43,376 bases of DNA, from the IMG/VR virus record IMGVR_UViG_3300046002_003911, positions 1 to 43,376 of that record; one strand, written 5' to 3'. Shown here one piece after another: positions 374-39,296 of the stretch; the stretch's first letter is position 1; every line of letters begins with the position of its first letter. The translations under genes were made by a program, and so were the position numbers. Source of the DNA: a virus. The notes below the pieces were generated by a model. That model searched no databases. It was not told the origin of the DNA and worked only from the letters and a program-made list of their open reading frames with translations.

Positions 374-447
374 GTTATACGCGCGGCAACTTGTATGCTC
401 AAATAATTTTACTGTGCTGTTGCGACTTGTTATATAGGGCGTTTGCT

Positions 448-481
448 TTGTAACTTTAACTTTTATTATTGCCAGCCAAAA
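448..481 (+). repeat. Dispersed direct repeat A, left copy
   Basis: A 34-base block running from TTGTAACTTTAAC to TTGCCAGCCAAAA matches 33241-33274 with a single mismatch. In both copies it is followed by a stem-loop and then by a TTGTTTTTGTTAG word (about 543 and 33340), and preceded by GTTATATAGG (about 430 and 33200). The two copies therefore share a longer degenerate element. Confidence 0.8.
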
Positions 482-660
482 TGTTTGCAAACAAAAAGCT
501 GGCATATAAAACAAAGTTATTTACTAAAGTTGCTTGTAAGTGCTTGTTTTTGTTAGCCTAAACTTTAAACCGAGATCGATCACTTTAAAGTTGGAATACA
601 AGTGGGTTTGACACACCAAAATTGTAATGTTTTTGAGGTTGAAGTGGGTAATGTATACTT

Positions 661-8705: not shown

Positions 8706-9108
8706 GAAACCTCGTAAGAAGTATGTTCGTAAACCTGTGATACGACCGTTTAATATCCGTGACCCTTGGTTGACCGAAGGTGACGCGTTAGCGGCAATGA
8801 TTGCATTGGACGCTGGTGTGTTGGGTCAATCTCATTTGAATATGTTAGTTGCTCATGCTGACATGGTTCGTAGATTTGGTAAGAATGTTGAAGAAGTCAA
8901 GCAAGCTGAGACAATCATAAGAATGTGTCATATCATAAACCAACGTCAAGACAAGCATGTTACCAAGTATGAGGAGTTACCCATTAGAGCAGCAATTAAG
9001 GTAACATTGCAGGCGTTACAAAAAGCAAGCAATAGGGAAGTATTTGATGCAGCAAGAGCCTCTATGCACGATATAGAGAAACACGGTGGTATAATTCTTT
9101 CTATTTAA
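8692..9108 (+). CDS. Conserved phage protein, 138 aa
   Basis: The ATG at 8692 is chosen because AGAGG lies about 9 bases upstream; the longer frame would overlap the zinc-ribbon gene more deeply. The N terminus is very basic (KKPRKKYVRKPVIRP) and the rest is alpha-helical (DALAAMIALDAGVLG). The basic tail suggests nucleic-acid binding. No family recognised with confidence. Confidence 0.65.
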   Translation: MATSKKPRKKYVRKPVIRPFNIRDPWLTEGDALAAMIALDAGVLGQSHLNMLVAHADMVRRFGKNVEEVKQAETIIRMCHIINQRQDKHVTKYEELPIRAAIKVTLQALQKASNREVFDAARASMHDIEKHGGIILSI

Positions 9109-9119
9109 AGGAAACTGAA

Positions 9120-9314
9120 ATGACTGATTTTAACGAAAATGACGAACTGATCGAAGCTAACAATATCACTAATGAAAGTGTTAAGCGTACCAGAAGCAAA
9201 CCTGTTGTCGTTGTCGTAAATGGTAAGGCTCAATGGTACAAAGGGGCGACCATGGAAGACATGAAAAAGGTTGCTGACTTTCTAGGACTTGAGTTCAAGT
9301 TGAGCATAAAATGA
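9120..9314 (+). CDS. Small hypothetical protein, 64 aa
   Basis: AAAGGA precedes the ATG by about 8 bases. It has an acidic N terminus followed by a basic VKRTRSKPVVVVVNGKAQWY stretch and a C-terminal helix. The stop overlaps the start of the next gene (ATGA), so it is coupled to the putative base-modification enzyme. Function unknown. Confidence 0.65.
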   Translation: MTDFNENDELIEANNITNESVKRTRSKPVVVVVNGKAQWYKGATMEDMKKVADFLGLEFKLSIK

Positions 9315-10183
9315 CTGACTTGACTAAAGATCAGCAAACGCTCTTTTATTGGATAAAAGAGCGTGAGTCTATCCGCATTAAGAAAGAAGCGGGTGAACCT
9401 AAACCTTGGACTGAAAATTCAATTTTACAAAAGTTCAAATTCTGCAATGTTCGTAGAGAGGATGACACTGTAAGCAAGTGGATTACTGAGGAATGGATTA
9501 AACCAAACGACCCACATCCAAATATGTGGTTTGCAATGGTCGTTGCGCGTTTGTTCAATTGGCCTCCGACGTTAGAAGAGATTTGCTTTCCTCATTTGGA
9601 CTTCCTTGAATTGAAAGAAAAATGGCGGCGCAATCTCAAAGGTCTGCGTGATGATGCTGGTGCTAAGATCTTCACAGGTGCTTACCTTGTTTCAACCAAT
9701 GGTATAAGTATGGACAAGATTGACTATGTTCTTGACCGTGTATTGACGCCCATTTGGATGAACGGTCTTCCACCTTCACTTGTTGAAAAATACACAAAGA
9801 CTGATGAACCATTGCGTCTTGAAGAATATTGGAAACACTTAACTGAATTCGACGGTCTTGGTAGTTTCATGGCAGGACAAGTTGTTGCCGACCTAAAGTT
9901 CGCATCTGATTTAAAAGATGCACGCGATTGGATGACATGGGCACCTCTTGGCCCTGGGTCAATTCGCGGTTTGAACCGTTTTCATGGAAGAGATGTTAAT
10001 GCGACATTGAAACAGGAAGAAGGTCTCAAAGAAATGTTAGAAGCACAACAGTTGATCGCAGAAAACTTAGGGTTAGTACTACCAGTTCACAATGTGCAAA
10101 ATTGCTTTTGTGAATATGATAAGTATTTGCGTGTTAAGAATGGTGAAGGTCGCCCGCGTTCACTTTACCCAGGAGTCAAATAA
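9311..10183 (+). CDS. Alpha-glutamyl/putrescinyl thymine pyrophosphorylase-family protein (5-hmdU hypermodification)
   Basis: This 290-aa protein looks like the family called aGPT-PPlase or 5-hmdU DNA kinase helical domain. Those enzymes act on 5-hydroxymethyl-deoxyuridine in phage DNA and replace an activated hydroxymethyl group with an amino acid or polyamine. Seen here: the signature FCNVRRE (44-50) after a Lys/Trp-rich N terminus, a helix-hairpin-helix-like DNA-glycosylase-fold segment DGLGSFMAGQVVADL (181-195), WAPLGPGSIRGLNR (210-223) and a C-terminal NCFCEYDKYLR (264-274). The next gene is a thymidylate synthase homologue, the expected source of 5-hmdUMP. No separate P-loop 5-hmdU kinase was seen in this window. 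The family assignment rests on recalled motifs; the chemistry is inferred. Confidence 0.8.
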   Translation: MTDLTKDQQTLFYWIKERESIRIKKEAGEPKPWTENSILQKFKFCNVRREDDTVSKWITEEWIKPNDPHPNMWFAMVVARLFNWPPTLEEICFPHLDFLELKEKWRRNLKGLRDDAGAKIFTGAYLVSTNGISMDKIDYVLDRVLTPIWMNGLPPSLVEKYTKTDEPLRLEEYWKHLTEFDGLGSFMAGQVVADLKFASDLKDARDWMTWAPLGPGSIRGLNRFHGRDVNATLKQEEGLKEMLEAQQLIAENLGLVLPVHNVQNCFCEYDKYLRVKNGEGRPRSLYPGVK

Positions 10184-11154
10184 TGTTAACTATTAATGGA
10201 AACAATGTAAATGATATATTCCCAAGAGGTTTGAAACTCTTGAATGAAGAAGGTGTATTCCGGCCAAGTCGTAACGGCCCGACCATTGAAATAATGGAAC
10301 CAATTAGTGTCCGTTACAATTACCCAGATGAACGGGTTTTATTTGAACCATTGCGAGATTCCAACCCATTCTTCTCTTTGTTTGAATCGTTGTGGATGTT
10401 GGCGGGTAGAAGTGATGTTGCTTTTCTTGATCAATATAATAGTCAAATGAAGCAGTACAGTGATGACGGTAAAAGATTTAATGCCGCTTATGGGCAACGT
10501 CTTCGTTCAGCATTTGGTATTGATCAATTGGAAGCGGTTATACAACGCCTTAGAAAGAATCCTGATGATCGTCAAGCGGTATTGCAAATATGGGACGTTA
10601 ATGACCTTGAAAAAGAAACAAAAGACAGAGCTTGTAACCTTGTAATCACGCCGCGCATCCGCAAAGGTAAGTTAGATTGGACAGTTTTCAATCGTAGCAA
10701 TGATTATATCTACGGTATGTTGGGAGCCAATGCAGTACACATGTCGGTGATTCAAGAATATGTCGCTCGTATGGTTGGTGTGCCGATGGGTAGTTATGAA
10801 CAAATCAGTAATTGTATGCACGTTTACACAAAGTTGACACCACATTGGGAACGGTTGAAAGATCTACCTTTAGAAACCAACTGTCCTTATAAGTCAGCTA
10901 AGGTCACACCTTTTCCATTGATAACCAACAAGGAAAGTTGGATGTCTGATCTGTACACTTGGATGGATCAACCGTGGTCAGGTGTTCAATATGTTGACCC
11001 ATTCTTTGAGCATGTGACGAAGCCGATGGCTATTGCACACAAGGCACACAAGGACAACAATAATGGGTTAAAATACATCGGTGCCATTAAGGCATCCGAT
11101 TGGCGGTTAGCTTGTGAACAATGGTTAGCGAAAAGAGAAAATCATGTTGACTAA
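10183..11154 (+). CDS. Thymidylate synthase homologue (thymidylate synthase or dUMP hydroxymethylase)
   Basis: A 323-aa ThyA-fold protein. The probable catalytic Cys lies in DRACNLV (about 145-151), the NRSNDYIYG segment matches the phosphate/dUMP-binding RS.D region, and an Asn follows in GMLGANAVHMS. In this fold Asn at that position favours dUMP, whereas dCMP hydroxymethylases carry Asp. The family makes dTMP or, in hmU phages, 5-hydroxymethyl-dUMP from dUMP and methylene-tetrahydrofolate. Adjacency to the pyrophosphorylase-family gene favours the hydroxymethylase role. AGGAG lies upstream of the ATG, and the start abuts the previous stop (TAATG). Confidence 0.9.
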   Translation: MLTINGNNVNDIFPRGLKLLNEEGVFRPSRNGPTIEIMEPISVRYNYPDERVLFEPLRDSNPFFSLFESLWMLAGRSDVAFLDQYNSQMKQYSDDGKRFNAAYGQRLRSAFGIDQLEAVIQRLRKNPDDRQAVLQIWDVNDLEKETKDRACNLVITPRIRKGKLDWTVFNRSNDYIYGMLGANAVHMSVIQEYVARMVGVPMGSYEQISNCMHVYTKLTPHWERLKDLPLETNCPYKSAKVTPFPLITNKESWMSDLYTWMDQPWSGVQYVDPFFEHVTKPMAIAHKAHKDNNNGLKYIGAIKASDWRLACEQWLAKRENHVD

Positions 11155-12713: not shown

Positions 12714-13172
12714 ATGCAAACGTTCTTACCTTACCCGCATTTTGCCGAGTCTGCCAAAGTTCTTGATTACCGCAGACTCGGCAAACAACGTGTTGAAGTG
12801 CTTCAGTTGTTGAGCGCACTTTCTAACGGCCCTGATAAATGGGTTACAACACATTACGGAGCGCCAGTGAAACGTGCGACTCCTTGGTACAATCATCCTG
12901 CTGCAAAAATGTGGCGCGGTTATGAAGACGCTCTAGTTTATTATGGTGCTGTCATGTGTCGTGAGTGGTTGAATCGAGGTTACAAAGACACATGTCTTGA
13001 TAAGATTCAATCATTTGCAACAAAAAGTGTTATCACTGAACCACCTTGGTTAGGTGACAGTGACTTCCATGCCGCGCACCGTTCCAACTTGCTCCGCAAA
13101 GACCCTGTTCATTACGGCCAATTCGGCTGGACTGAACCTAACGATTTACCTTACATCTGGCCGACAATATGA
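12714..13172 (+). CDS. Pyrimidine-dimer DNA glycosylase/endonuclease V-like protein
   Basis: A 152-aa protein that resembles the Pyr_excise/endonuclease V-like group. Members carry the N-terminal pattern MQTFLPYPHFAESAKVLDYR followed by LGKQRVEV and end with a LLRKDPVHYG..GW motif; all are visible here (1-20, 23-30 and about 127-139). T4 endonuclease V removes UV-induced cyclobutane dimers through an N-terminal amine and an active-site Glu. Whether this relative acts on dimers or on another base is not known; beside a base-modification set it could instead process modified bases. It sits just upstream of the polymerase. Confidence 0.75.
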   Translation: MQTFLPYPHFAESAKVLDYRRLGKQRVEVLQLLSALSNGPDKWVTTHYGAPVKRATPWYNHPAAKMWRGYEDALVYYGAVMCREWLNRGYKDTCLDKIQSFATKSVITEPPWLGDSDFHAAHRSNLLRKDPVHYGQFGWTEPNDLPYIWPTI

Positions 13173-15327: not shown

Positions 15328-16136
15328 TCAAAGTCTTTATCCCTACCTATAAACGGTTGAACCGCCAGCCCACGTTACAAGCGCTCAATGCTGCGGGGGT
15401 GGCTACGGTATTAATAGTGCGCCCAGAGGAAGCGCAAGGGGCTTTAGATTTGGCCCAGAGGTTAAATTTAGGTAACGCACAGTGTACTGTTTACACGTTA
15501 CCCGAAGGTATCACCAACCTTGCTCAAACGCGGCAAGTTTTGATGGAGAACGTTGAAGATGACGTGGTCTTCATGATGGATGATGACTTATCATTTGCCG
15601 TGCGTGGTAAACGTGCCGATAATCCTTTGTACTTATCGGCTGCTGAAGCAAGTGATGTTCAAGAGATGGTCAAACAAGTTTACTACCATTGTGAAAAGGA
15701 AGGTTTGGCAGGAGTCTCAATGCGTGAAGGTAATAACCGCAAAGAGGAAGAGGTTGAATATTGTTCACGCATGTGCCGCGCATGGGCAGTTCACATGCCG
15801 ACGTTCCGTGCAATCGGCGCAAAGTTTGAACAATACCCTTCCGTTGAAGACTTTGATATTACGTTACAATTCCTTCTAGCCGGTAAGCGTAACGCAGTCT
15901 TGAACAATTTCACAACGAATCAGTTCGGTTCCAATACTGAAGGTGGTTGTTCTGAATACCGCACGATGGATGTGCAAAAAGAAGCTGCTGAAGCATTGGC
16001 AAGGAAGTATCCGTTATTTGTGAAGACTGTTAGTAAAGAAACAAAAACGAAAGTCACTTGGGGTGGTCAAACCCGCATAGATGTTCATGTACAATGGAAG
16101 AAGGCTTATAAGGAAGGATTGAAAAATGTCAAATGA
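15324..16136 (+). CDS. TET-associated-type glycosyltransferase (DNA base glycosylation)
   Basis: A 270-aa GT-A-fold glycosyltransferase. It has the N-terminal nucleotide-sugar strand FIPTYKR (5-11), LPEGITNLAQTRQ (about 59-71), the metal-binding MMDDDLSF (about 88-95) and a C-terminal GGCSEYRT...WGGQTRIDVHVQWKKAY pattern. This is the arrangement I know from TAGT enzymes, predicted to glycosylate hydroxymethylated bases in phage DNA. No TET/JBP dioxygenase was seen here, so the hydroxymethyl base may come from the thymidylate synthase homologue. It overlaps the polymerase and the radical SAM gene, which puts modification and replication in one operon. Confidence 0.85.
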   Translation: MIKVFIPTYKRLNRQPTLQALNAAGVATVLIVRPEEAQGALDLAQRLNLGNAQCTVYTLPEGITNLAQTRQVLMENVEDDVVFMMDDDLSFAVRGKRADNPLYLSAAEASDVQEMVKQVYYHCEKEGLAGVSMREGNNRKEEEVEYCSRMCRAWAVHMPTFRAIGAKFEQYPSVEDFDITLQFLLAGKRNAVLNNFTTNQFGSNTEGGCSEYRTMDVQKEAAEALARKYPLFVKTVSKETKTKVTWGGQTRIDVHVQWKKAYKEGLKNVK

Positions 16137-17109
16137 TTACCAACAAGAACCACCGTTTGCAGTACAAGTAGAATTCACAGAAGGTTGTTCGTTATATTGC
16201 GACTTCTGCGGTCTTCGTGGTATTCGTGAGGGTGTTGGTGATTACAAATTCGCAACACCTGAAACGATTCAACGTATTGCTGATGAAATCAAACGATTAG
16301 ATTGGAATCCGCGTATTGAAATTGCCATGCGAGGTGAACCTTCAATGAATCCAAACTTTATTGAACTAGTTTCAATCCTTCGCAAGACCTTGCCTAAACA
16401 TCAGTTGATGATGACGTCAAATGGTAGTGGTTACATCAAAGCGGGGAATGTACAGAAGGTGTTTCAAGCAGGTCTAAACATTCTTGCGCTTGATAAATAT
16501 GAAGGTGTTGATTTTGTTGACCGTGCGTTGAAGAACTTGACAATCACTACAAATGACGCAGGTTTTAAAAATTGGGAAGGATTGCCGATTTATGATTATC
16601 CTGCGCAACCTGACGGTAATCCACATCGGCGCATCAAAGGTAAGATGATCAGTGTCATGCGCGACATTTCAATTGCTGACAAAGGGACGCATGCCAAGTT
16701 GTCAAATCATTGTGGAGCAGCATCTCCGTTGGACTATAGTAAAGAAGGGAAGAGATGCGCTCGCCCATTCCGCGAACTGTCGATTCACTACAATGGTGAC
16801 ATTGCTATTTGCTGCAACGCGTGGCGTGGGACATACGCTTGTGGTAACATAAACAAATTAGGGCTTGATGAAATTTGGCAGGGTAAGCCGTTTACCTTAG
16901 CTCGGAAGGCGCTGTATAACGGCCAGCGTACGTTCAAACCATGTTTAGGTTGTAATGCTACCAGCTACCGGGCGGGGTTCCTACCTGACAAGAAAGGTAA
17001 AGAATCGCTACCATTACCAACTGAAGCTGAGTGGATTGAGATTCACAAAATTGCCGAGGCACCTGCTTTGACACCGATTGTTTTTAGACCTTGGGAATTA
17101 AAGAAATGA
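16126..17109 (+). CDS. Radical SAM enzyme with SPASM-like C-terminal cysteines
   Basis: A 327-aa radical SAM protein. The 4Fe-4S/SAM motif CSLYCDFC (about 16-23) follows an EFTEGC strand. A GEP-like segment RGEPSMNP (about 69-76) fits the SAM amino-group contact. Further Cys at about 206, 226-227 and 272-275 (CARPF, ICCN, CLGC) are arranged like an auxiliary SPASM/twitch cluster. The substrate is unknown. It overlaps the glycosyltransferase, so it may rearrange or further modify a DNA base; radical SAM enzymes occur in some published phage thymidine-hypermodification pathways. Peptide or RNA modification are alternatives. Confidence 0.88.
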   Translation: MSNDYQQEPPFAVQVEFTEGCSLYCDFCGLRGIREGVGDYKFATPETIQRIADEIKRLDWNPRIEIAMRGEPSMNPNFIELVSILRKTLPKHQLMMTSNGSGYIKAGNVQKVFQAGLNILALDKYEGVDFVDRALKNLTITTNDAGFKNWEGLPIYDYPAQPDGNPHRRIKGKMISVMRDISIADKGTHAKLSNHCGAASPLDYSKEGKRCARPFRELSIHYNGDIAICCNAWRGTYACGNINKLGLDEIWQGKPFTLARKALYNGQRTFKPCLGCNATSYRAGFLPDKKGKESLPLPTEAEWIEIHKIAEAPALTPIVFRPWELKK

Positions 17110-30421: not shown

Positions 30422-30445
30422 ATCCCGCCTTTGAGCGGGATTTTT
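30422..30445 (+). terminator. Rho-independent terminator
   Basis: ATCCCGC (30422-30428) pairs with GCGGGAT (30435-30441), followed by TTTTT. The 140 bases after it (30446-30585) hold no gene. They carry a GGTAG-rich stretch at 30481-30504 that resembles, inverted, 35125-35155. Confidence 0.93.
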
Positions 30446-30585
30446 ATTGCCTGTAATGCCGGTAAGCGTGGCAGAGCAAGGTAGTGGGTAGGGTAGCATA
30501 GGCCAGGGTGTTCAAATGGTAGCAATGGGCGGTATATTGCTCGTATGGGGCATGGTTTTATGGCGCTTTACCTGTTTTATGGCGG

Positions 30586-30993
30586 TTATTTCGGCAACAG
30601 TAGCCAATTATTCAAGGTTAGTATCTTTGGTTCATGCCGTCTTATATGAACATCAAGGCTTGAACAATCAAGCATTCGATCATCGAAATCAAGTAACACA
30701 ATGTCGCTATTGAATTCAGTTACTATCCACGCCTTACCTCCGGTCAATGAATGAACATGTTGCCAATTGATTTGTTCTTTTGAAACCTTATACGCGCGGG
30801 TCTTAGTCTCAAGCCAACATGTGAAATGTTTATTCTCATTAATTTTAGAGCTTGAAGATTGATATGAGAAATAACAATCTGGTACACCTGACCCTGTTGA
30901 TGTTTCAATTCGTTGTAGCATCCATTTACCTTTAGGTAGAAGTTTGTTCAATTCGCGTTTGAGTTTAGCGTGTAGTTTTTGTTCGGGGGTCAT
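30586..30993 (-). CDS. VRR-NUC-type PD-(D/E)XK nuclease
   Basis: A 135-aa nuclease on the leftward strand. The motif GVPDCYF (about 36-42) with Asp39, then CWLETKT (about 59-65) with E62-x-K64, and KEQINW (about 72-77) match the VRR-NUC family. Such enzymes act on structured or free DNA ends, including Holliday junctions in some members. The ribosome binding site is AAAGG about 10 bases upstream. It lies opposite to every neighbour, diverging from the promoter at 31014, so it may be a later insertion. Confidence 0.85.
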   Translation of the reverse strand: MTPEQKLHAKLKRELNKLLPKGKWMLQRIETSTGSGVPDCYFSYQSSSSKINENKHFTCWLETKTRAYKVSKEQINWQHVHSLTGGKAWIVTEFNSDIVLLDFDDRMLDCSSLDVHIRRHEPKILTLNNWLLLPK

Positions 30994-31013: not shown

Positions 31014-31072
31014 TTGTAAAGAACAGCGTGCAGGTTTACTATTTGTGTGCCGCAATTTTAGCGGTAAATTTT
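31014..31072 (+). promoter_or_regulatory. Promoter with 5' leader hairpin
   Basis: TTGTAA (31014-31019), 17-bp spacer (AGAACAGCG...), TACTAT (31037-31042). The leader folds as GTGCCGC...GCGGTAA (about 31047-31068) before AAAGGTG. Near-copy of 28939-28995. Confidence 0.82.
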
Positions 31073-33154: not shown

Positions 33155-33240
33155 TGGTTAATTGTTCGCTCGGGTAAGTGGGTAGTGGGGTTTTGAGGTG
33201 TTATATAGGTCTTACTAAGTTTAGGCATTAAACGGTCTAC

Positions 33241-33360
33241 TTGTAAGTTTAACTTTTATTATTGCCAGCCAAAAAGTGCAAAACAAAAAAGTCGGCATAT
33301 ATTAGTAAGGTAAAGTTACAAAGTCGGGGTTATGTGTTTGTTTTTGTTAGGTGGAGTTTT
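33241..33360 (+). repeat. Dispersed direct repeat A, right copy
   Basis: Bases 33241-33274 match 448-481 with one mismatch. The similarity continues loosely through a stem-loop (GCC...GGC) to TTGTTTTTGTTAG near 33340. Confidence 0.8.
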
Positions 33361-33747: not shown

Positions 33748-33990
33748 GTTTCACTGTCACTCAGCCTTTTAAAATAGTATATATTATTCTTATTTATTGG
33801 ACGATTTGACCGACTATGGTTGGAGTTGTGACATTGGTTAGAGCAAGATTGGATTATACGCGAATTGATATTATGTTGACCCCCCCCTGATCAAAATCGA
33901 TTGGATTATACGCGAGTTGTCCTTGTCACTCAGCCTTTTCAAAATCATTTATTTGACTCTTCAAATCGGTTGATTGAGACGACTATGGTG
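33748..33990 (+). repeat. Dispersed direct repeat B, copies 2 and 3
   Basis: Copy 2 (33748-33846) starts GTTTCACTGTCACTCAGCCT and ends TTGGTTAGAGCAA, like 661-759. Copy 3 (33924-33990) keeps TGTCACTCAGCCTTTT and GAGACGACTATGGTG. The copies alternate with the iteron-like repeats. Confidence 0.75.
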
Positions 33991-34086
33991 AGAGTGTCGT
34001 TATTTGATTATACGCGAATTGATATTATGTTGACCCTGATCACTGCCGATTTGATTATACGCGAATTTGATTATACGTGATTTGAT
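33852..34086 (+). repeat. Iteron-like repeats GATTATACGYGA
   Basis: Five copies of GATTATACG(C/T)GA start at about 33852, 33904, 34005, 34053 and 34069. Two copies extend identically through ATTGATATTATGTTGACC. A related TTATACGCG occurs at about 375. The region may be a replication origin or the binding site of an initiator or regulator; the sequence alone does not decide. Confidence 0.7.
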
Positions 34087-34118
34087 ATGACGTGAGACCA
34101 GATAGAACAGATTTTGGC

Positions 34119-34220
34119 AATAGTACGTTTGTACTATTGTTTGGCTAGCATACATTTACCCGCTTGGCAATAGTACAAACATACTATAGTACGTTTGTAC
34201 CACCAACAAATAGTACAAAA
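34119..34220 (+). promoter_or_regulatory. Operator-like array of TAGTACAAAC/GTTTGTAC sites
   Basis: CAATAGTAC-GTTTG-TACTATTG (about 34119-34140) is an inverted repeat. AATAGTACAAAC (about 34169-34180), TAGTACGTTTGTAC (about 34187-34200) and AATAGTACAAAA (about 34210-34221) repeat its half sites in both orientations. The array lies just upstream of the promoter of the 207-aa gene, so an autoregulator or host factor could bind here. Confidence 0.65.
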
Positions 34221-34247
34221 AACATGCACTAACTTGTTGGTGCAGGT

Positions 34248-34280
34248 TATTATTTGTGTGCCGCAATTGGCGGCGCAACC
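34248..34280 (+). promoter_or_regulatory. Promoter -10 with 5' leader hairpin
   Basis: TATTAT (34248-34253) is followed by GTGTGCCGC...GCGGCGCA (about 34256-34277), as in the other cassettes. No good -35 is found at 17 bp, so the unit may need an activator or use the repeats upstream. Confidence 0.6.
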
Positions 34281-34295
34281 AAACAGGTAAACAAA

Positions 34296-34919
34296 ATGCA
34301 AGCTACTAAAGGCAACACCAAAAGCAAAGCTACGAAACAGGTTGTTACGTTTAACAATGGCTTAACGGCAAATACTGCCGCGCCTATAGGCGTGCAAACA
34401 AATAACGGCTTGCCGGTGCAGTTTACCGCGCCGCAAAATAGCATGGCTGCAATGGCCCAAACTATAATGGCCGAAACAATTAAACCCGTTACAAGTGGGC
34501 GTAACGTAGGTTTTATTAGTTTTATAAACGGTTGGCCTAATGGCGTGCCGGTTGCAAACATGCAACCGCTAACTATTAACGGCGAGTTATTTAATGGCAA
34601 TATTGCGCACACTAACCCAGTGTGCAAAGCATACGTTAGCGGTAAAGCACAATCGGCAAACGTGCCAGCCTTTAAACAAAGCAACCAATTGGTTAAGTTG
34701 GGCAAAAAAGCCCCGCCTAACAATAGCAGTAATGTAACCAATGCTATATTCGGCCAAGCGGTAAATGCAGCATTTACCGCCAATGGCGGTAAGCCAATAA
34801 CATTAGGCGCATTGGCGCAAGCTTGTGCTAACGCAGGCGGTAGCGGCGCAATGCCGAATGTAATACCGTGGTTAGTACAACACGCATACGGCCGCACGCA
34901 TTGGCTAGTAAATGCGTAA
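34296..34919 (+). CDS. Unidentified protein without aspartate, 207 aa
   Basis: The ATG at 34296 follows an ACAGGT ribosome binding site in the standard leader cassette, and a terminator lies 25 bases after the stop. This is the main support for coding, because the absence of TGA and TCA makes long frames less informative here. The protein has no Asp, only two Glu, 12 Lys, 2 Arg and about 26 Asn. All Ser are AGC/AGT and all Phe TTT. The N terminus is basic (QATKGNTKSKATKQ). The C-terminal third (PITLGALAQACANAGG, then VIPWLVQHAYGRTHW) looks like a folded helical domain, possibly helix-turn-helix. The missing acidic residues follow directly from the DNA-level lack of GA. No family recognised. 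Confidence 0.65.
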   Translation: MQATKGNTKSKATKQVVTFNNGLTANTAAPIGVQTNNGLPVQFTAPQNSMAAMAQTIMAETIKPVTSGRNVGFISFINGWPNGVPVANMQPLTINGELFNGNIAHTNPVCKAYVSGKAQSANVPAFKQSNQLVKLGKKAPPNNSSNVTNAIFGQAVNAAFTANGGKPITLGALAQACANAGGSGAMPNVIPWLVQHAYGRTHWLVNA

Positions 34920-35001
34920 ACAATAACCGTTATTGTTTACAACAAAGCGGGCATTGCCCGCTTTTATTTTGCCTTGCAAATAATAATGGTTATTGTTTGC
35001 A
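34919..35001. repeat. Inverted repeats flanking the terminator
   Basis: AACAATAACCGTTATTGTT (34919-34937) is itself a palindrome. AATAATGGTTATTGTTTGC (about 34983-35000) repeats its right half in near-identical form. The pair brackets the terminator and could mark the end of a mobile segment. Confidence 0.55.
34944..34965 (+). terminator. Rho-independent terminator
   Basis: AAAGCGGGC (34944-34952) pairs with GCCCGCTTT (34956-34964), with T-rich sequence after it. It ends the 207-aa gene unit. Confidence 0.92.
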
Positions 35002-35020
35002 ATAGCGTATCGGCACAATG

Positions 35021-35123
35021 CACGCCAGCACGCCAGCACGCCAGCACGCCAGCACGCCAGCACGCCAGCACGCCAGCACGCCAGCACGCCAGCACGCCAG
35101 CACGCCAGCACGCCAGCACGCCA
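35021..35123 (+). repeat. Octamer minisatellite CACGCCAG, about 12.9 copies
   Basis: Twelve perfect copies of CACGCCAG plus seven bases of a thirteenth, without interruption. There is no spacer, so it is not a CRISPR array. Eight is not a multiple of three, so a chance ORF across it cycles through three peptides; it is judged non-coding. DGA/TCH are absent here too. Confidence 0.95.
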
Positions 35124-35386
35124 CGGCCTAGGCTACCCTACATGCTACCCACTTGCGTACACGCATGGCCCATTGTGGTGCGTTACAGCCCTATGTTACA
35201 TATTGCAACGCGTTGTAAGGTGGCATGGCCTATGCTATAGCAAGTACCGTGCCAACTGCTATAGTACATACATACTAGCGAAGGGGCCAAGCAAGTACCG
35301 TGCCAGCCGTGGTGGTACAGGCGTACTAGCGACGGGCATACCACCTGGTTTTAAAAGGCGATGGGTCCCATAGGGTAACTACCTAG

Positions 35387-35589: not shown

Positions 35590-35618
35590 TTTAAAAATTT
35601 CAAAATTTGTGTTATAAT
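35590..35618 (+). promoter_or_regulatory. Promoter of the packaging operon (weak -35)
   Basis: TATAAT (35613-35618) with only TTTAAA (35590-35595) 17 bp upstream, in an A/T-rich stretch. It may depend on an activator, as late promoters often do. Confidence 0.55.
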
Positions 35619-35662: not shown

Positions 35663-36307
35663 ATGGCACGCTCAAGAAAACCCAAATTCAATAGTAATGA
35701 TAAAGACGCACCGCCGCCATTCGTGCTAGGTGACGACTTTGTACCGAACGTTGTCAAACCGTACAGTGAATACCCTAAACAGTTCGATGCCGAAGGTAAT
35801 CCATTGGCTCAAGTTGAACAAACTGAAATTCAAGGACTTGGTCGCGATCCTTTGGTTGCTCAGTATATGTTGCCAGAATGGTCAAAGAACATAAGCGAAG
35901 CGATGATCAACAACGCGAACATCAAAGGGAGTCCAGGATTTGACCCGGGTTATGAACAAGCCAAGCAAGTAGAACAAATGACCGCATTGGGCCTCAGTGT
36001 CCAAGACATCGCCGCGACATTGAGAATTGAACCTAAGCTACTTGAAAAGTATTATCAGTACGAGATTGACACATCTGCCCAACGTATCAACCAAGCCGTT
36101 GCAAAGATTGCCCTCCAAAGCGCCCTCGGAGGCGATACGGATATGGTGAAGTTCTGGTTGAAAACACGCGCCGGATGGAAAGAGACAAAGGTCACCGAAT
36201 TGACCGGATCCAATGGTGGTCCTGTTTTATTCTCCGAAGTCAAGCAGAACTTCCTTAGTGCAATCGAAGCCGAGATCACCGATGTTGATTATGAGGACTC
36301 GAAATGA
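35663..36307 (+). CDS. terS: Terminase small subunit-like protein
   Basis: A 214-aa protein directly upstream of the large terminase. Residues about 104-125 form a helix-turn-helix (TALGLSVQDIAATLRIEPKL), the DNA-binding part that recognises the packaging site. The region after it (AQRINQAVAKIALQSALGG) is helical, as in the oligomerisation domain. The N terminus is basic and disordered (ARSRKPKFNSNDK). AAAGGA is upstream of the ATG at 35663; the upstream TTG in frame overlaps the promoter. An ATGA overlap leads to the next gene. Confidence 0.8.
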   Translation: MARSRKPKFNSNDKDAPPPFVLGDDFVPNVVKPYSEYPKQFDAEGNPLAQVEQTEIQGLGRDPLVAQYMLPEWSKNISEAMINNANIKGSPGFDPGYEQAKQVEQMTALGLSVQDIAATLRIEPKLLEKYYQYEIDTSAQRINQAVAKIALQSALGGDTDMVKFWLKTRAGWKETKVTELTGSNGGPVLFSEVKQNFLSAIEAEITDVDYEDSK

Positions 36308-36447
36308 CCATCGACGAACTCGAAATGATTATCGACGAACTCATTGTTTCTGTTGATAACTATGTTCCAACAGAATCCGATATCAGAGATATTGAACCAA
36401 CAAAAGAAATAACGAACGATTGGCTTAATATTGAGTACACGATATGA
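36304..36447 (+). CDS. Tiny acidic protein between the terminase genes, 47 aa
   Basis: ATGA overlaps at both ends (with the small and the large terminase) argue for translation. The product is acidic (TIDELEMIIDELIVSVDNY), with an internal direct repeat of ATCGACGAACTC in the DNA. It may be a chaperone-like or regulatory peptide, or only a translational coupler. Confidence 0.6.
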   Translation: MTIDELEMIIDELIVSVDNYVPTESDIRDIEPTKEITNDWLNIEYTI

Positions 36448-39296
36448 GTGACAAATATGTCCTAAAGTCGACTGACAAACCGTCAATCGAATACCTCAGT
36501 GCAAGAGAGAAGTTTGATACGCTTCCTGCGAGAAAACGCGCAGAGATGATTCGTGCAATGTCAGACGAAGACGCTGCCAAACTCCAATATGATTGGGAAT
36601 TCCTTGGTCGACCGAAACAACTTGCTCCAGATCATAAGAAGTCAAAAGCGACATCATATTGCATGTGTCGTTATTTGAAAGCGCAAAGTCAGACAGACAA
36701 AAAATTAAAGATCGAGAGTTTTCCTAGTTGCCACCAACACGAAAAGCTTGAAGGCGAAAAAACTAACGTCATAATCACTTACGAACCTCCATCAGAAGAC
36801 GGATGGAAACCAATCCAGCATCTAAAGCCAGATGTATGGATCAAGGAAGTACCGAATCCTAATGACGAAGTTTGCGAGTTCCGCAAGCAATGGGCAACGT
36901 GGATCTTATTGGCTGGAAGGGGGTTCGGAAAAGCGTCCTTAATTACTACACCTATTCCAACTGTATCCGGCTGGAAAAAACTTGGAGAAATAGTTGACGG
37001 CGACGTTATTTTCGATGAAAAAGGTGAATTGACAACTGTTATCAAAGCTCATGAATCTTATGTAACCGATGATATCTATGAAGTTACTTTTTCAGACAAA
37101 TCCAAACTCACTGTTGATGGGCAACACCTTTGGACTGTTTGGGAACATTTAGATTGCAAACAATATGGTAGATACGACACCTCTGTAGACAGAGGTGTTT
37201 TTCCAAATGACTGGGCGACTTTCTCAGGTGATAAATACGATTGTTATCGAAATATTGTCGGTAGTTATGGAGCAAAAACATTTACGACTGAAGAATTGAA
37301 AACCCGGTTATCAAAGGTTCCAAGGATACCTTTGACCGCACCTTTGAACTTACCCAATATCGAATTACCTATAGATCCGTGGGTTCTAGGTTATTGGTTA
37401 GGTAATGGTGATTCAAAATCTGGAGGAGTTCACACTGGTTCTCACAACGGCGTTACCGATTTTGAATTCGTTAAATCTAAATTCTTAGAAGCAAGCTACG
37501 AAGTGACGAAAGAACGATCTGATTCTAAAAGAGATGACGTCAGAACTTTCTGTGGTCACATATTCAGCAACGATCTAAATGTTCTTTTGAAAGAAAACAA
37601 TCTTTTAGGTGATAAACACGTTCCTTCTGTTTATTTGCGAGCCTCTATATATCAAAGATTGTCGTTGTTAAAAGGTTTGATGGATTCAGACGGATATCCT
37701 GGTAATGACAATAATTTCGTAGGGTTCAGTTCAACAATAAAAGCTCTTTCAGACGCCGTTTTTGAACTTGCTGTTTCTTTAGGTGAAAAACCACTTAGAA
37801 ACGAAGGTTATGGTGTTCTTTATGGCATTGAAAAGAAATATAATTGGGGTGTTTCTTATCGCCCAAACATTATTCCGTTCGATTTACCTAGAAAGCGAAA
37901 TCGTATCACTCTTCCTGAAACAGGTCACCAAGGTCTTCGCCATAAACATCGTATAATAAAGAAGATAGAAAGAACTGCAAAAGGTGAAGTGAGGTGTCTT
38001 ACTGTAGATTCACCTAGTCACCTGTACTTGTTGGGTGAATCAATGATTCCGACACATAACACTCGTGTCGGCGCAGAATGGATCCGTGAAATGGTTGAAA
38101 CGGGTCAATCTAGACGTGCAGCGGTTATTAGTCCTACAGCTTCAGACGCTCGTGATGTAGCTGTTGAAGGTCAGTCTGGACTTGTTAGCGTATGTCCTCC
38201 ATGGAACAGGCCTCTTTATGAATCAACCAAACGTCGCGTAACATGGAGTAATGGGGCGCAGGCGAGTTTGTTTTCTGCTGAAGAACCTGAGCGGTTACGC
38301 GGGCCACAATTTGATGCAGCATGGATAGATGAAATTGCAGGATTTGACGTCAATACGCAGCAAATGGCTTTCGATATGCTTCAATTCTGTTTGCGTTTAG
38401 GTAATAACCCGCGATGCGTCGTAACGACGACGCCGAAACCCACTCCATTGATCCAGCAGTTGGTCAAATTGGCACGGCATCCGATCAATAAGATCATCAT
38501 TACGACAGGTTCTACTTACGAGAATAAGACCAATCTCGCTGCACCATTCATGCGGCAGATTACACAATATGAAGGAACAAACCTTGGTCGTCAAGAGATC
38601 TACGCAGAATTGATTGATATTGAGGAATCTGGTATATTGAAACGCTCTTGGTTCAAACAATGGCCTGCGAAGAAAGCGATGCCGGTCATTGAATTCGTCA
38701 TTCAGTCATACGACACAGCGTTTACTGAAAGCACTGAAAATGACCCGACTGGGTGCGTGACATTTGGCGTATTCCGCCCATCTCCCGATGAACCTCATTG
38801 TGTTATGATTCTCGATTGTTGGACTGATCGTTTGAAATACCCAGAACTCCGTAACAAAGCTATTGAAGAATACAAATGCACTTATGGAGATCAAGAGGCG
38901 CCTGTTGATATGTTATTGATTGAGGACAAGGGTTCTGGTATTCCTTTGATACAAGACTTACAACGGGCAGGCTTACCTATACGCAAATATAATCCAGGGC
39001 GACCAGATAAAACAATGCGCCTCCATGCTGTATCTCACCTTGTTTACAACGGGCGCGTTTATATTCCCGAAAGCAAACAAGTTCCAGGAGAATTTGTCAC
39101 ATGGGCTGAAGATTATTTACGAGAGGTTTGTGCGTTCCCTAACAGTCCTCATGACGAATTCGTTGACGTAACAAGTCAGGCTTTAGCAGTCTTCCGTGAC
39201 CAGGAATGGCTTAGTATAGACCCTGTAGTTAAACGAGATGAAGAAGATACTGATTCGTGGGAAAACAATGTTTACCGTAATCCTTATGACTCGTAA
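36444..39296 (+). CDS. terL: Terminase large subunit with an intein
   Basis: A 950-aa precursor. After removal of a 376-aa intein (164-539) a 574-aa terminase remains. The ATPase has Walker A GRGFGK-T, split by the intein after Lys163, Walker B AWIDE (about 624-628) and the TTTPKPT coupling motif (about 665). The nuclease has Asp in YDTAFTES (about 756), IEDKG (about 832) and Asp in SPHDEFVD (about 901-908). It powers DNA translocation into proheads and cuts the concatemer. Splicing is needed to restore Walker A, so packaging depends on it. Confidence 0.95.
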   Translation: MSDKYVLKSTDKPSIEYLSAREKFDTLPARKRAEMIRAMSDEDAAKLQYDWEFLGRPKQLAPDHKKSKATSYCMCRYLKAQSQTDKKLKIESFPSCHQHEKLEGEKTNVIITYEPPSEDGWKPIQHLKPDVWIKEVPNPNDEVCEFRKQWATWILLAGRGFGKASLITTPIPTVSGWKKLGEIVDGDVIFDEKGELTTVIKAHESYVTDDIYEVTFSDKSKLTVDGQHLWTVWEHLDCKQYGRYDTSVDRGVFPNDWATFSGDKYDCYRNIVGSYGAKTFTTEELKTRLSKVPRIPLTAPLNLPNIELPIDPWVLGYWLGNGDSKSGGVHTGSHNGVTDFEFVKSKFLEASYEVTKERSDSKRDDVRTFCGHIFSNDLNVLLKENNLLGDKHVPSVYLRASIYQRLSLLKGLMDSDGYPGNDNNFVGFSSTIKALSDAVFELAVSLGEKPLRNEGYGVLYGIEKKYNWGVSYRPNIIPFDLPRKRNRITLPETGHQGLRHKHRIIKKIERTAKGEVRCLTVDSPSHLYLLGESMIPTHNTRVGAEWIREMVETGQSRRAAVISPTASDARDVAVEGQSGLVSVCPPWNRPLYESTKRRVTWSNGAQASLFSAEEPERLRGPQFDAAWIDEIAGFDVNTQQMAFDMLQFCLRLGNNPRCVVTTTPKPTPLIQQLVKLARHPINKIIITTGSTYENKTNLAAPFMRQITQYEGTNLGRQEIYAELIDIEESGILKRSWFKQWPAKKAMPVIEFVIQSYDTAFTESTENDPTGCVTFGVFRPSPDEPHCVMILDCWTDRLKYPELRNKAIEEYKCTYGDQEAPVDMLLIEDKGSGIPLIQDLQRAGLPIRKYNPGRPDKTMRLHAVSHLVYNGRVYIPESKQVPGEFVTWAEDYLREVCAFPNSPHDEFVDVTSQALAVFRDQEWLSIDPVVKRDEEDTDSWENNVYRNPYDS
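36933..38060 (+). mobile_element. Ala1-type intein with LAGLIDADG homing endonuclease
   Basis: 376 residues between Lys163 and Thr540 of the terminase precursor. It starts with Ala (ASLITTPIPTVSGWKKLGEI) instead of Cys or Ser and ends in PTHN, followed by Thr at +1. Endonuclease motifs are WVLGYWLGNGD (about 312-322) and LLKGLMDSDGY (about 408-418). Ala1 inteins splice without the first N-S/O shift. The insertion in the P-loop (GK/T) is a favourite intein site in phage terminases. Confidence 0.92.

What the first reader, a model, noticed from the sequence alone, without database searches (positions are those of the whole stretch)
34112..35365. 1.25 kb from which DGA and TCH trinucleotides are completely absent
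Reading each base, AGA, GGA, TGA, TCA, TCC and TCT do not occur anywhere in 34112-35365. GA/TC steps are seen only as CGA or TCG, ten times. With near-random composition about 150 GA/TC steps, and about 120 outside CG context, would be expected. The rule covers operators, promoter, coding sequence, terminator, inverted repeats and minisatellite, on both strands, and it ends abruptly on both sides. Codon choice or protein constraint cannot explain it. Possible causes are selection against a short recognition motif (a nuclease, restriction or modification activity on TCH/DGA), strand-symmetric C-to-T mutation at TC outside CG context (a deaminase signature), or import from a replicon with such a rule. 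I know of no described case.
Basis: seen in the sequence. Interest (0 to 1): 0.95.

Follow-up and report, generated by a model that had tools for sequence, protein, structure and literature searches.

The report
Phage gene island purged of TC
A group of bacterial viruses that appear to decorate the T bases of their DNA keeps one gene-sized stretch almost completely free of the two-letter word TC on both strands, probably so that this one control gene and its switches stay undecorated and readable.

Summary
It is not chance, codon choice or protein constraint. It is conserved: at the same locus, just upstream of the small terminase gene, two further phage lineages carry TCH-free islands (1,105 and 721 nt), although the encoded protein has diverged to 28-36% identity. 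Two more lineages have a milder, ORF-centred version that spares TCC (or TCY). The avoided word is therefore TC, with lineage-specific +2 preference. The phages encode a 5-hydroxymethyl-dU DNA kinase, a thymidylate-synthase homologue, and (strict lineages) a glycosyltransferase; published kinases of this family act at TG/TC. Island strictness tracks the glycosyltransferase/Pyr_excise genes rather than overall phage relatedness. Best reading (inferred): selection keeps one regulatory transcription unit free of the dinucleotide at which the phage hypermodifies thymine, a 'modification-exempt island'. Deaminase mutation, restriction-site avoidance, GA-type 7-deazaguanine modification and import are disfavoured. 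Modification chemistry and island function are untested. Seven isolated kinase-bearing phages have no such island, so it is clade-specific and, as far as I could find, undescribed.

The parts
34112..35365 (.). TCH/DGA-free island (strict), both strands, coding and non-coding
34296..34919 (+). 207-aa island ORF; almost no acidic residues (D 0, E 2), Ala/Asn rich, basic N-terminal tail; milder-lineage orthologues end in a MerR/HTH-like stretch
34114..34226 (.). operator-like inverted/direct repeats (TTGGCAATAGTAC...GTACTATTG; GTACNNNNGTAC)
34240..34295 (+). leader with GCCGC-AATT-GGCGGC hairpin; 30 nt are 93% identical to a second copy at 31028-31057
34947..34970 (+). intrinsic-terminator-like hairpin (GCGGGC/GCCCGC) with T-run
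   Evidence: sequence
35020..35123 (.). minisatellite (GCACGCCA)x13; replaced by (CCAG)n or (GCCCGCCA)n in relatives, also TC-free in the strict lineages
35124..35365 (.). conserved non-coding 3' segment with 47-nt direct repeats; alignable with L007 at about 73% identity over 172 nt
33852..34076 (+). five GATTATAC iterons next to the island; a 4-5 copy cluster is present upstream of the island in every lineage, in a GA/TC- and GATC-rich stretch
33755..33934 (+). two copies of the TGTCACTCAGC element (third copy at 668), promoter-like, containing TC
35663..36307 (+). terminase small subunit, the syntenic anchor just downstream of the island in all relatives (listed ORF starts at 35618)
9311..10183 (+). 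5-hmdU DNA kinase homologue (PF18723 HMUDK_hel, E 2.9e-42), proposed TC-reading enzyme
10183..11154 (+). thymidylate-synthase-family protein (candidate dUMP hydroxymethylase)
12714..13172 (+). Pyr_excise (PF03013) protein; present in strict-island phages, not found in the milder-island phage G001
15324..16136 (+). TET-associated glycosyltransferase (PF20691); present in strict-island phages, absent from G001
16126..17109 (+). radical SAM/SPASM protein adjoining the glycosyltransferase

Best explanation
The segment is a modification-exempt island. Shown: purifying selection at the DNA level keeps a gene-sized regulatory unit, immediately upstream of terS, free or nearly free of TC on both strands in three independent strict lineages, and free of a subset of TCN in two milder ones. 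Inferred: TC is the site at which the phage's hypermodification pathway (thymidylate-synthase homologue giving 5hmdU, 5hmdU DNA kinase, then glycosyltransferase/radical-SAM decoration) converts thymine, so purging TC leaves the island's double helix undecorated. Inferred and least certain: the undecorated state is needed because bulky T decoration blocks bacterial RNA polymerase and DNA-binding proteins; the island holds a transcription unit (operators, leader hairpin, ORF for a basic HTH-like protein, terminator, conserved repeats) that must be read or bound when the rest of the virion DNA is decorated, for example at first entry, at a replication origin beside the iterons, or at terminase recognition.
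For: Zero TCH in 1,254 nt. Independent strict islands at the same place: L040 1,105 nt, L047/G010 721 nt, plus contig-truncated copies of the L040 species (L007, L041, L042). TC observed/expected: window 10/156, L040 2/134, L047 0/88. Proteins diverged (36%, 28%, 22%, 20% identity to the window's), yet the strict ones stay TC-free or nearly so; D+E fall to 0-1% from 14%, so the DNA rule overrides protein composition. Milder lineages show a word-specific pattern against a protein-preserving null: L048 TCA 1 vs 9.4, TCT 0 vs 7.8, TCG 1 vs 12.6 but TCC 14 vs 12.5; L046 TCA 2 vs 9.9, TCG 1 vs 13.8, as expected for enzymes with different +2 preference. HMUDK_hel E 2.9e-42, TS, TAGT and radical SAM in the same phage. 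Literature: 5hmdU DNA kinase acts at TG/TC (PMC6449724, PMC7653180); bulky modifications block bacterial RNAP and promoter binding (PMC11550810); phosphorylated 5hmdU lowers E. coli RNAP transcription (PMC7653180). G010 is closer to G001 than to the window in most genes (TerS 89 vs 78%, HMUDK 84 vs 72%), yet shares the strict island together with TAGT, Pyr_excise and dCMP deaminase with the window; G001 lacks these and has a milder island. The ORF is under purifying selection (L048 vs L046 dN 0.052, dS 0.430).
Against: No modification has been measured in any of these phages. Published kinases act at TG as well as TC, and TG is not avoided here (200 observed vs 158 expected), so a TC-only specificity must be assumed. 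HMUDK of G010 and G001 are 84% identical although their islands differ. Seven isolated HMUDK phages (M6, phiW-14, ViI and others) and four IMG/VR kinase phages show no TC-, TG- or TS-free island, so the link to the kinase is not general. Only four kinase-island pairings could be made within one contig or species.
Confidence: 0.55

Rival explanations
1. The island avoids TC because a TC-reading enzyme other than the phage's own hypermodifier attacks it: a phage nuclease/glycosylase that cuts unmodified TC (host DNA degradation, with phage DNA protected by decoration), or a host defence enzyme such as a DarT2-type thymidine ADP-ribosyltransferase or a TC-specific deaminase acting where the island is single-stranded.
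For: Also predicts strand-symmetric, DNA-level, lineage-specific TCN avoidance. A Pyr_excise protein tracks with strict islands. An iteron cluster next to the island could mark an origin with exposed strands.
Against: It does not explain why one segment is purged while the rest carries about 100 TCH per kb. DarT2 needs a four-letter motif (TNTC for one homologue, recalled from the literature), whereas here every NNTCH is gone.
Confidence: 0.22
2. Structural or RNA-level selection: the island, or both of its transcripts, must lack GA/UC steps for some folding, looping or RNA-processing reason unrelated to base modification.
For: Inverted repeats, minisatellite and a hairpin leader are present; the island is one transcription-unit-sized block.
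Against: No RNase or structure known to me needs removal of every TC and GA; the milder lineages show a TCC exemption that structure does not predict.
Confidence: 0.1
3. Mutational footprint of a TC-preferring cytosine deaminase acting on this segment.
For: TC is the preferred context of several deaminases; TCG is partly spared in the window.
Against: Island GC is higher than the genome (0.49-0.57 vs 0.41-0.46); TT is not specially enriched (213/170, versus TA 111/81 and TG 200/158), GC steps are doubled, CC and AC are unchanged. A mutational process would leave constrained TC sites in the ORF; none but TCG is left.
Confidence: 0.03
4. Recent import of a segment from a replicon that has this rule throughout.
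For: Composition changes sharply at the borders.
Against: Homologous flanks, operators and 3' segment sit at the same place in all clade members; no relative of the ORF in phages, plasmids, GTDB genomes or other viral contigs.
Confidence: 0.03

Closest known systems
5hmdU-derived hypermodified-thymine phages (Pseudomonas M6, Salmonella ViI, Delftia phiW-14; HMUDK pathway)
   Same: HMUDK_hel kinase, thymidylate-synthase-family enzyme and candidate decorating enzymes; published site preference TG/TC.
   Different: M6, ViI, phiW-14 and four other isolates have no TC-, TG- or TS-free island (longest TCH-free run 92 nt). The present clade avoids TC only, not TG.
Restriction-site and palindrome avoidance in phage genomes
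   Same: Selection removes a short word.
   Different: Classic avoidance is genome-wide and partial; this is one 0.7-1.25 kb segment, essentially complete. Palindromes inside the island are not more depleted than elsewhere.
7-deazaguanine (DpdA) phages with a GA modification motif
   Same: A GA/TC dinucleotide is the modification word (recalled from the literature, not read here).
   Different: No TGT/DpdA or QueC homologue in G000, G001, G002 or G010.
Non-random distribution of alpha-putrescinylthymine in phiW-14
   Same: PMC5977210 notes unpublished evidence that PutThy is not randomly placed and may matter for packaging; the present island adjoins terS.
   Different: No motif-free island exists in phiW-14.

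Membership tests
HMUDK-type thymine-hypermodifying phages | 5-hmdU DNA kinase (PF18723) | tested here: met
   E 2.9e-42 in the window; also in G001, G002 and G010
HMUDK-type thymine-hypermodifying phages | dUMP hydroxymethylase (thymidylate-synthase family) | tested here: inconclusive
   family match at 10183-11154; hydroxymethylase versus TS activity cannot be told
HMUDK-type thymine-hypermodifying phages | downstream decorating enzymes | tested here: inconclusive
   TAGT glycosyltransferase and radical SAM/SPASM are encoded; that they decorate DNA is inferred
HMUDK-type thymine-hypermodifying phages | modified T in virion DNA, at TG/TC | not testable with these tools
   needs LC-MS or nanopore
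7-deazaguanine (DpdA) GA-motif phages | TGT/DpdA and QueC homologues | tested here: not met
   (the window and G002 are fragments; G001 and G010 are about 70 kb)
TC-deaminase mutational signature | TC replaced by TT, lowered GC | tested here: not met
DarT2-type TNTC avoidance | avoidance restricted to TNTC | tested here: not met
   all NNTCH absent
Restriction-site avoidance | excess palindrome depletion in the island | tested here: not met
   4-mer z -2.2, 0.1, -0.7 versus -2.1 to -3.9 elsewhere in the window; 6-mer z -1.8 to -2.9 versus -2.0 to -2.7

The most novel reading that the evidence does not exclude
Phages can carry a genetically encoded 'modification-exempt' regulatory island: a gene and its control DNA purged of the exact dinucleotide that the phage's own DNA-hypermodifying enzymes recognise, so that the same genome is heavily decorated everywhere except one switch. 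The word avoided evolves with the modification module, so modification specificity can be read from sequence alone.
Probability: 0.5. Interest if true: 0.95.

Novelty: categorically new. Interest (0 to 1): 0.9.

Why it matters
If right, it shows that phages with hypermodified DNA solve the problem of reading their own armour-plated genome by sequence design, identifies the control unit that must remain readable, and gives a purely computational read-out of modification-enzyme specificity. It also supplies a natural series of avoided words (TCH, TCN, TCD, TCR) for dissecting 5hmdU-kinase and glycosyltransferase sequence rules. Even if the enzyme is another one, near-total loss of a dinucleotide over a gene-sized, conserved locus, strong enough to strip Asp and Glu from a protein, is a form of DNA-level selection I found no description of.

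Tried and rejected
(1) Chance: Markov simulations. (2) Codon or protein constraint: protein-preserving resampling. (3) Assembly artefact: independent lineages from different metagenomes. (4) Deaminase mutation: composition evidence. (5) GA-motif 7-deazaguanine modification: no DpdA/TGT or QueC. (6) General property of kinase phages: seven isolates, whole genomes, and four IMG/VR phages have no island. (7) Restriction-palindrome avoidance in the island: no more than elsewhere. (8) AlphaFold of the island protein: low confidence (pLDDT 37 and 40), so no fold search was made. (9) Homologues of the ORF outside the clade: none in phages, plasmids, GTDB genomes or viral contigs. (10) A DNA-pattern scan for more members gave only known ones plus four chance hits without islands. 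(11) terS in GTDB genomes: none, so the host is unknown. (12) A test whether substitutions between close relatives avoid creating TC was uninformative: the close relatives are the same species with almost no differences, and the distant ones align too poorly.

Full report
OBSERVATION. The recount is exact: 34112-35365 contains no TCA, TCC, TCT, TGA, GGA or AGA; GA appears seven times as CGA and TC three times as TCG. From base composition 118 TCH/DGA would be expected, and the window as a whole has about 100 per kb. The run is 1,257 nt, the next longest 174 nt, and the longest in 100 order-2 Markov copies of the window was 106 nt. TCG is also low (10 observed, 38 expected), so the avoided word is TC with partial tolerance of TCG. 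The rule spans operators, leader, ORF, terminator, minisatellite and a 3' non-coding segment.

NOT CODING CONSTRAINT. Holding the 207-aa protein fixed and resampling codons gives 33.8 TCH/DGA (minimum 20 in 2,000 draws) against 0. The protein itself has been bent by the rule: D 0 and E 2 of 207 residues, where this phage's other proteins have 14% D+E; Ala and Asn are raised.

CONSERVATION. The window is an IMG/VR virus record. Anchoring on the small terminase subunit just downstream, relatives were fetched. The same locus carries a TCH-free run of 1,105 nt in L040, at least 821 nt in L007 (the contig starts inside it), at least 250 nt in L041 and L042 (likewise), and 721 nt in L047. L040, L007, L041 and L042 are one species, so the strict islands represent three independent lineages: window, L040/G002 and L047/G010. 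TC observed/expected is 10/156, 2/134 and 0/88. In L047 the start of the ORF (8898-8937) lies just outside the TC-free run and keeps four TC/GA words. The island proteins are only 36%, 28%, 22% and 20% identical to the window's, and the satellite unit differs (GCACGCCA, CCAG, GCCCGCCA), yet the rule holds in the strict lineages. Upstream, a cluster of four to five GATTATAC iterons in a GATC- and GA/TC-rich stretch adjoins the island in every lineage.

LINEAGE-SPECIFIC WORD. In two further lineages the island is milder and confined to the ORF. Against a protein-preserving, GC3-matched null, L048 (G001) has TCA 1 (9.4 expected), TCT 0 (7.8), TCG 1 (12.6), but TCC 14 (12.5); L046 has TCA 2 (9.9), TCG 1 (13.8), TCT 7 (10.8), TCC 15 (13.8). 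A selective exemption of TCC (or TCY) is what one expects if different phages must avoid words of enzymes with different +2 preference; uniform decay of an old island would not give it. L048 and L046 ORFs differ with dN 0.052 and dS 0.430, so the ORF is a real gene under purifying selection; its C-terminus resembles a MerR/HTH stretch, below the curated cut-off.

WHY TC. The phage carries a 5-hmdU DNA kinase (PF18723, E 2.9e-42), a thymidylate-synthase-family protein next to it, a TET-associated glycosyltransferase and a radical-SAM/SPASM protein. Published work on M6, ViI and phiW-14 finds hypermodified T at TG and TC, and 5hmdU DNA kinase acting at TG/TC (PMC6449724; PMC7653180). Bulky base modifications block bacterial RNA polymerase and promoter binding (PMC11550810), and phosphorylation of 5hmdU lowers transcription by E. 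coli RNA polymerase (PMC7653180). Purging TC would therefore keep a stretch undecorated and readable. Comparing near-complete relatives, G010 is closer to G001 than to the window in most genes (TerS 89 versus 78%, HMUDK 84 versus 72%, primase 96 versus 90%; DNA polymerase is an exception, 87 versus 91%), but shares with the window, and not with G001, the strict island, the glycosyltransferase, the Pyr_excise protein and a dCMP deaminase. The G002-type contig L012 also has glycosyltransferase, Pyr_excise and radical SAM. G001 has instead a different post-polymerase cassette, judged by eye as glycosyltransferase-, HAD- and nucleotidyltransferase-like. So island strictness follows the modification cassette rather than overall relatedness. 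This is a correlation over four lineages, not proof.

LIMITS. Nothing here measures a modified base. The proposed enzyme must read TC and not TG, unlike the published average for the family; TG is abundant in the island. Seven isolated kinase phages (M6, phiW-14, ViI, RHph_TM26, Pam3, Sonora, nACB2; longest TCH-free run 92 nt) and four more IMG/VR kinase phages have no such island, so it is special to this clade. The host is unknown. The structure predictions of the island protein are unusable. The literature search was limited to open-licence PMC papers; the primary kinase paper (Lee et al. 2018) was not held.

RIVALS. A different TC-reading enzyme (phage nuclease or glycosylase acting on unmodified TC, or host DarT2-like/deaminase attack on exposed strands) predicts the same pattern and is the main rival; the all-NNTCH loss argues against a TNTC enzyme. 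Deaminase mutation is contradicted by higher GC, by TA, TG and TT rising together, and by doubled GC steps. DpdA-type modification at GA lacks its enzymes. Palindromes are not specially depleted in the island. Import is contradicted by synteny and homology of the flanks.

FUNCTION. The island is a complete-looking transcription unit with operators, hairpin leader, a basic HTH-like product, terminator and a conserved repeat-rich tail, placed between iterons/promoter-like repeats and terS. The most economical role is a control gene that must be transcribed or bound while the surrounding genome is decorated; early expression after entry, origin function and packaging-site function cannot be separated with sequence alone.

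VERDICT. Confirmed, conserved, not explained by any ordinary cause tested, and apparently undescribed; mechanism proposed with moderate confidence.

Noticed in passing
window 36444-39296; L007 1747-4512: The large terminase appears to carry an intein-like insert at the Walker A region in the window, and at a different position in the related L007 terminase (read from the translations).
   Followed up: no
window 30440-30620 and 31028-31057: Fragments resembling island parts: a leader copy 93% identical to 34240-34269, and a TCH-poor stretch (100-nt run at 30512) resembling the reverse complement of the island's GGCCTAGGCTACCC segment.
   Followed up: partly
window 399-573 and 33236-33353: The next-longest TCH-free runs (174 and 117 nt) share an element (CAGCCAAAA, AACTTTTATTATTGCCAGCC) upstream of the TGTCACTCAGC repeats, probably phage promoters.
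   Followed up: no
G001 contig 55267-58063 (L053/L054): The cassette after the DNA polymerase is swapped among relatives: glycosyltransferase-like + HAD-like + cytidylyltransferase-like in G001, TAGT + methyltransferase-like in G010, TAGT + radical SAM in the window (by-eye reading for the non-TAGT genes of the relatives).
   Followed up: partly
L046 1670-1770, L048 4330-4410: Fur-box-like ATAATGATAATGACTATC inverted repeats lie between ORF and satellite in the milder-island lineages; altered in the strict ones, where they would contain GA/TC.
   Followed up: no
L111 (phiW-14 152000-157486) 1299-2672: A 1,373-nt stretch near the end of the phiW-14 record without ATW/WAT words; not checked against local composition.
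   Followed up: no
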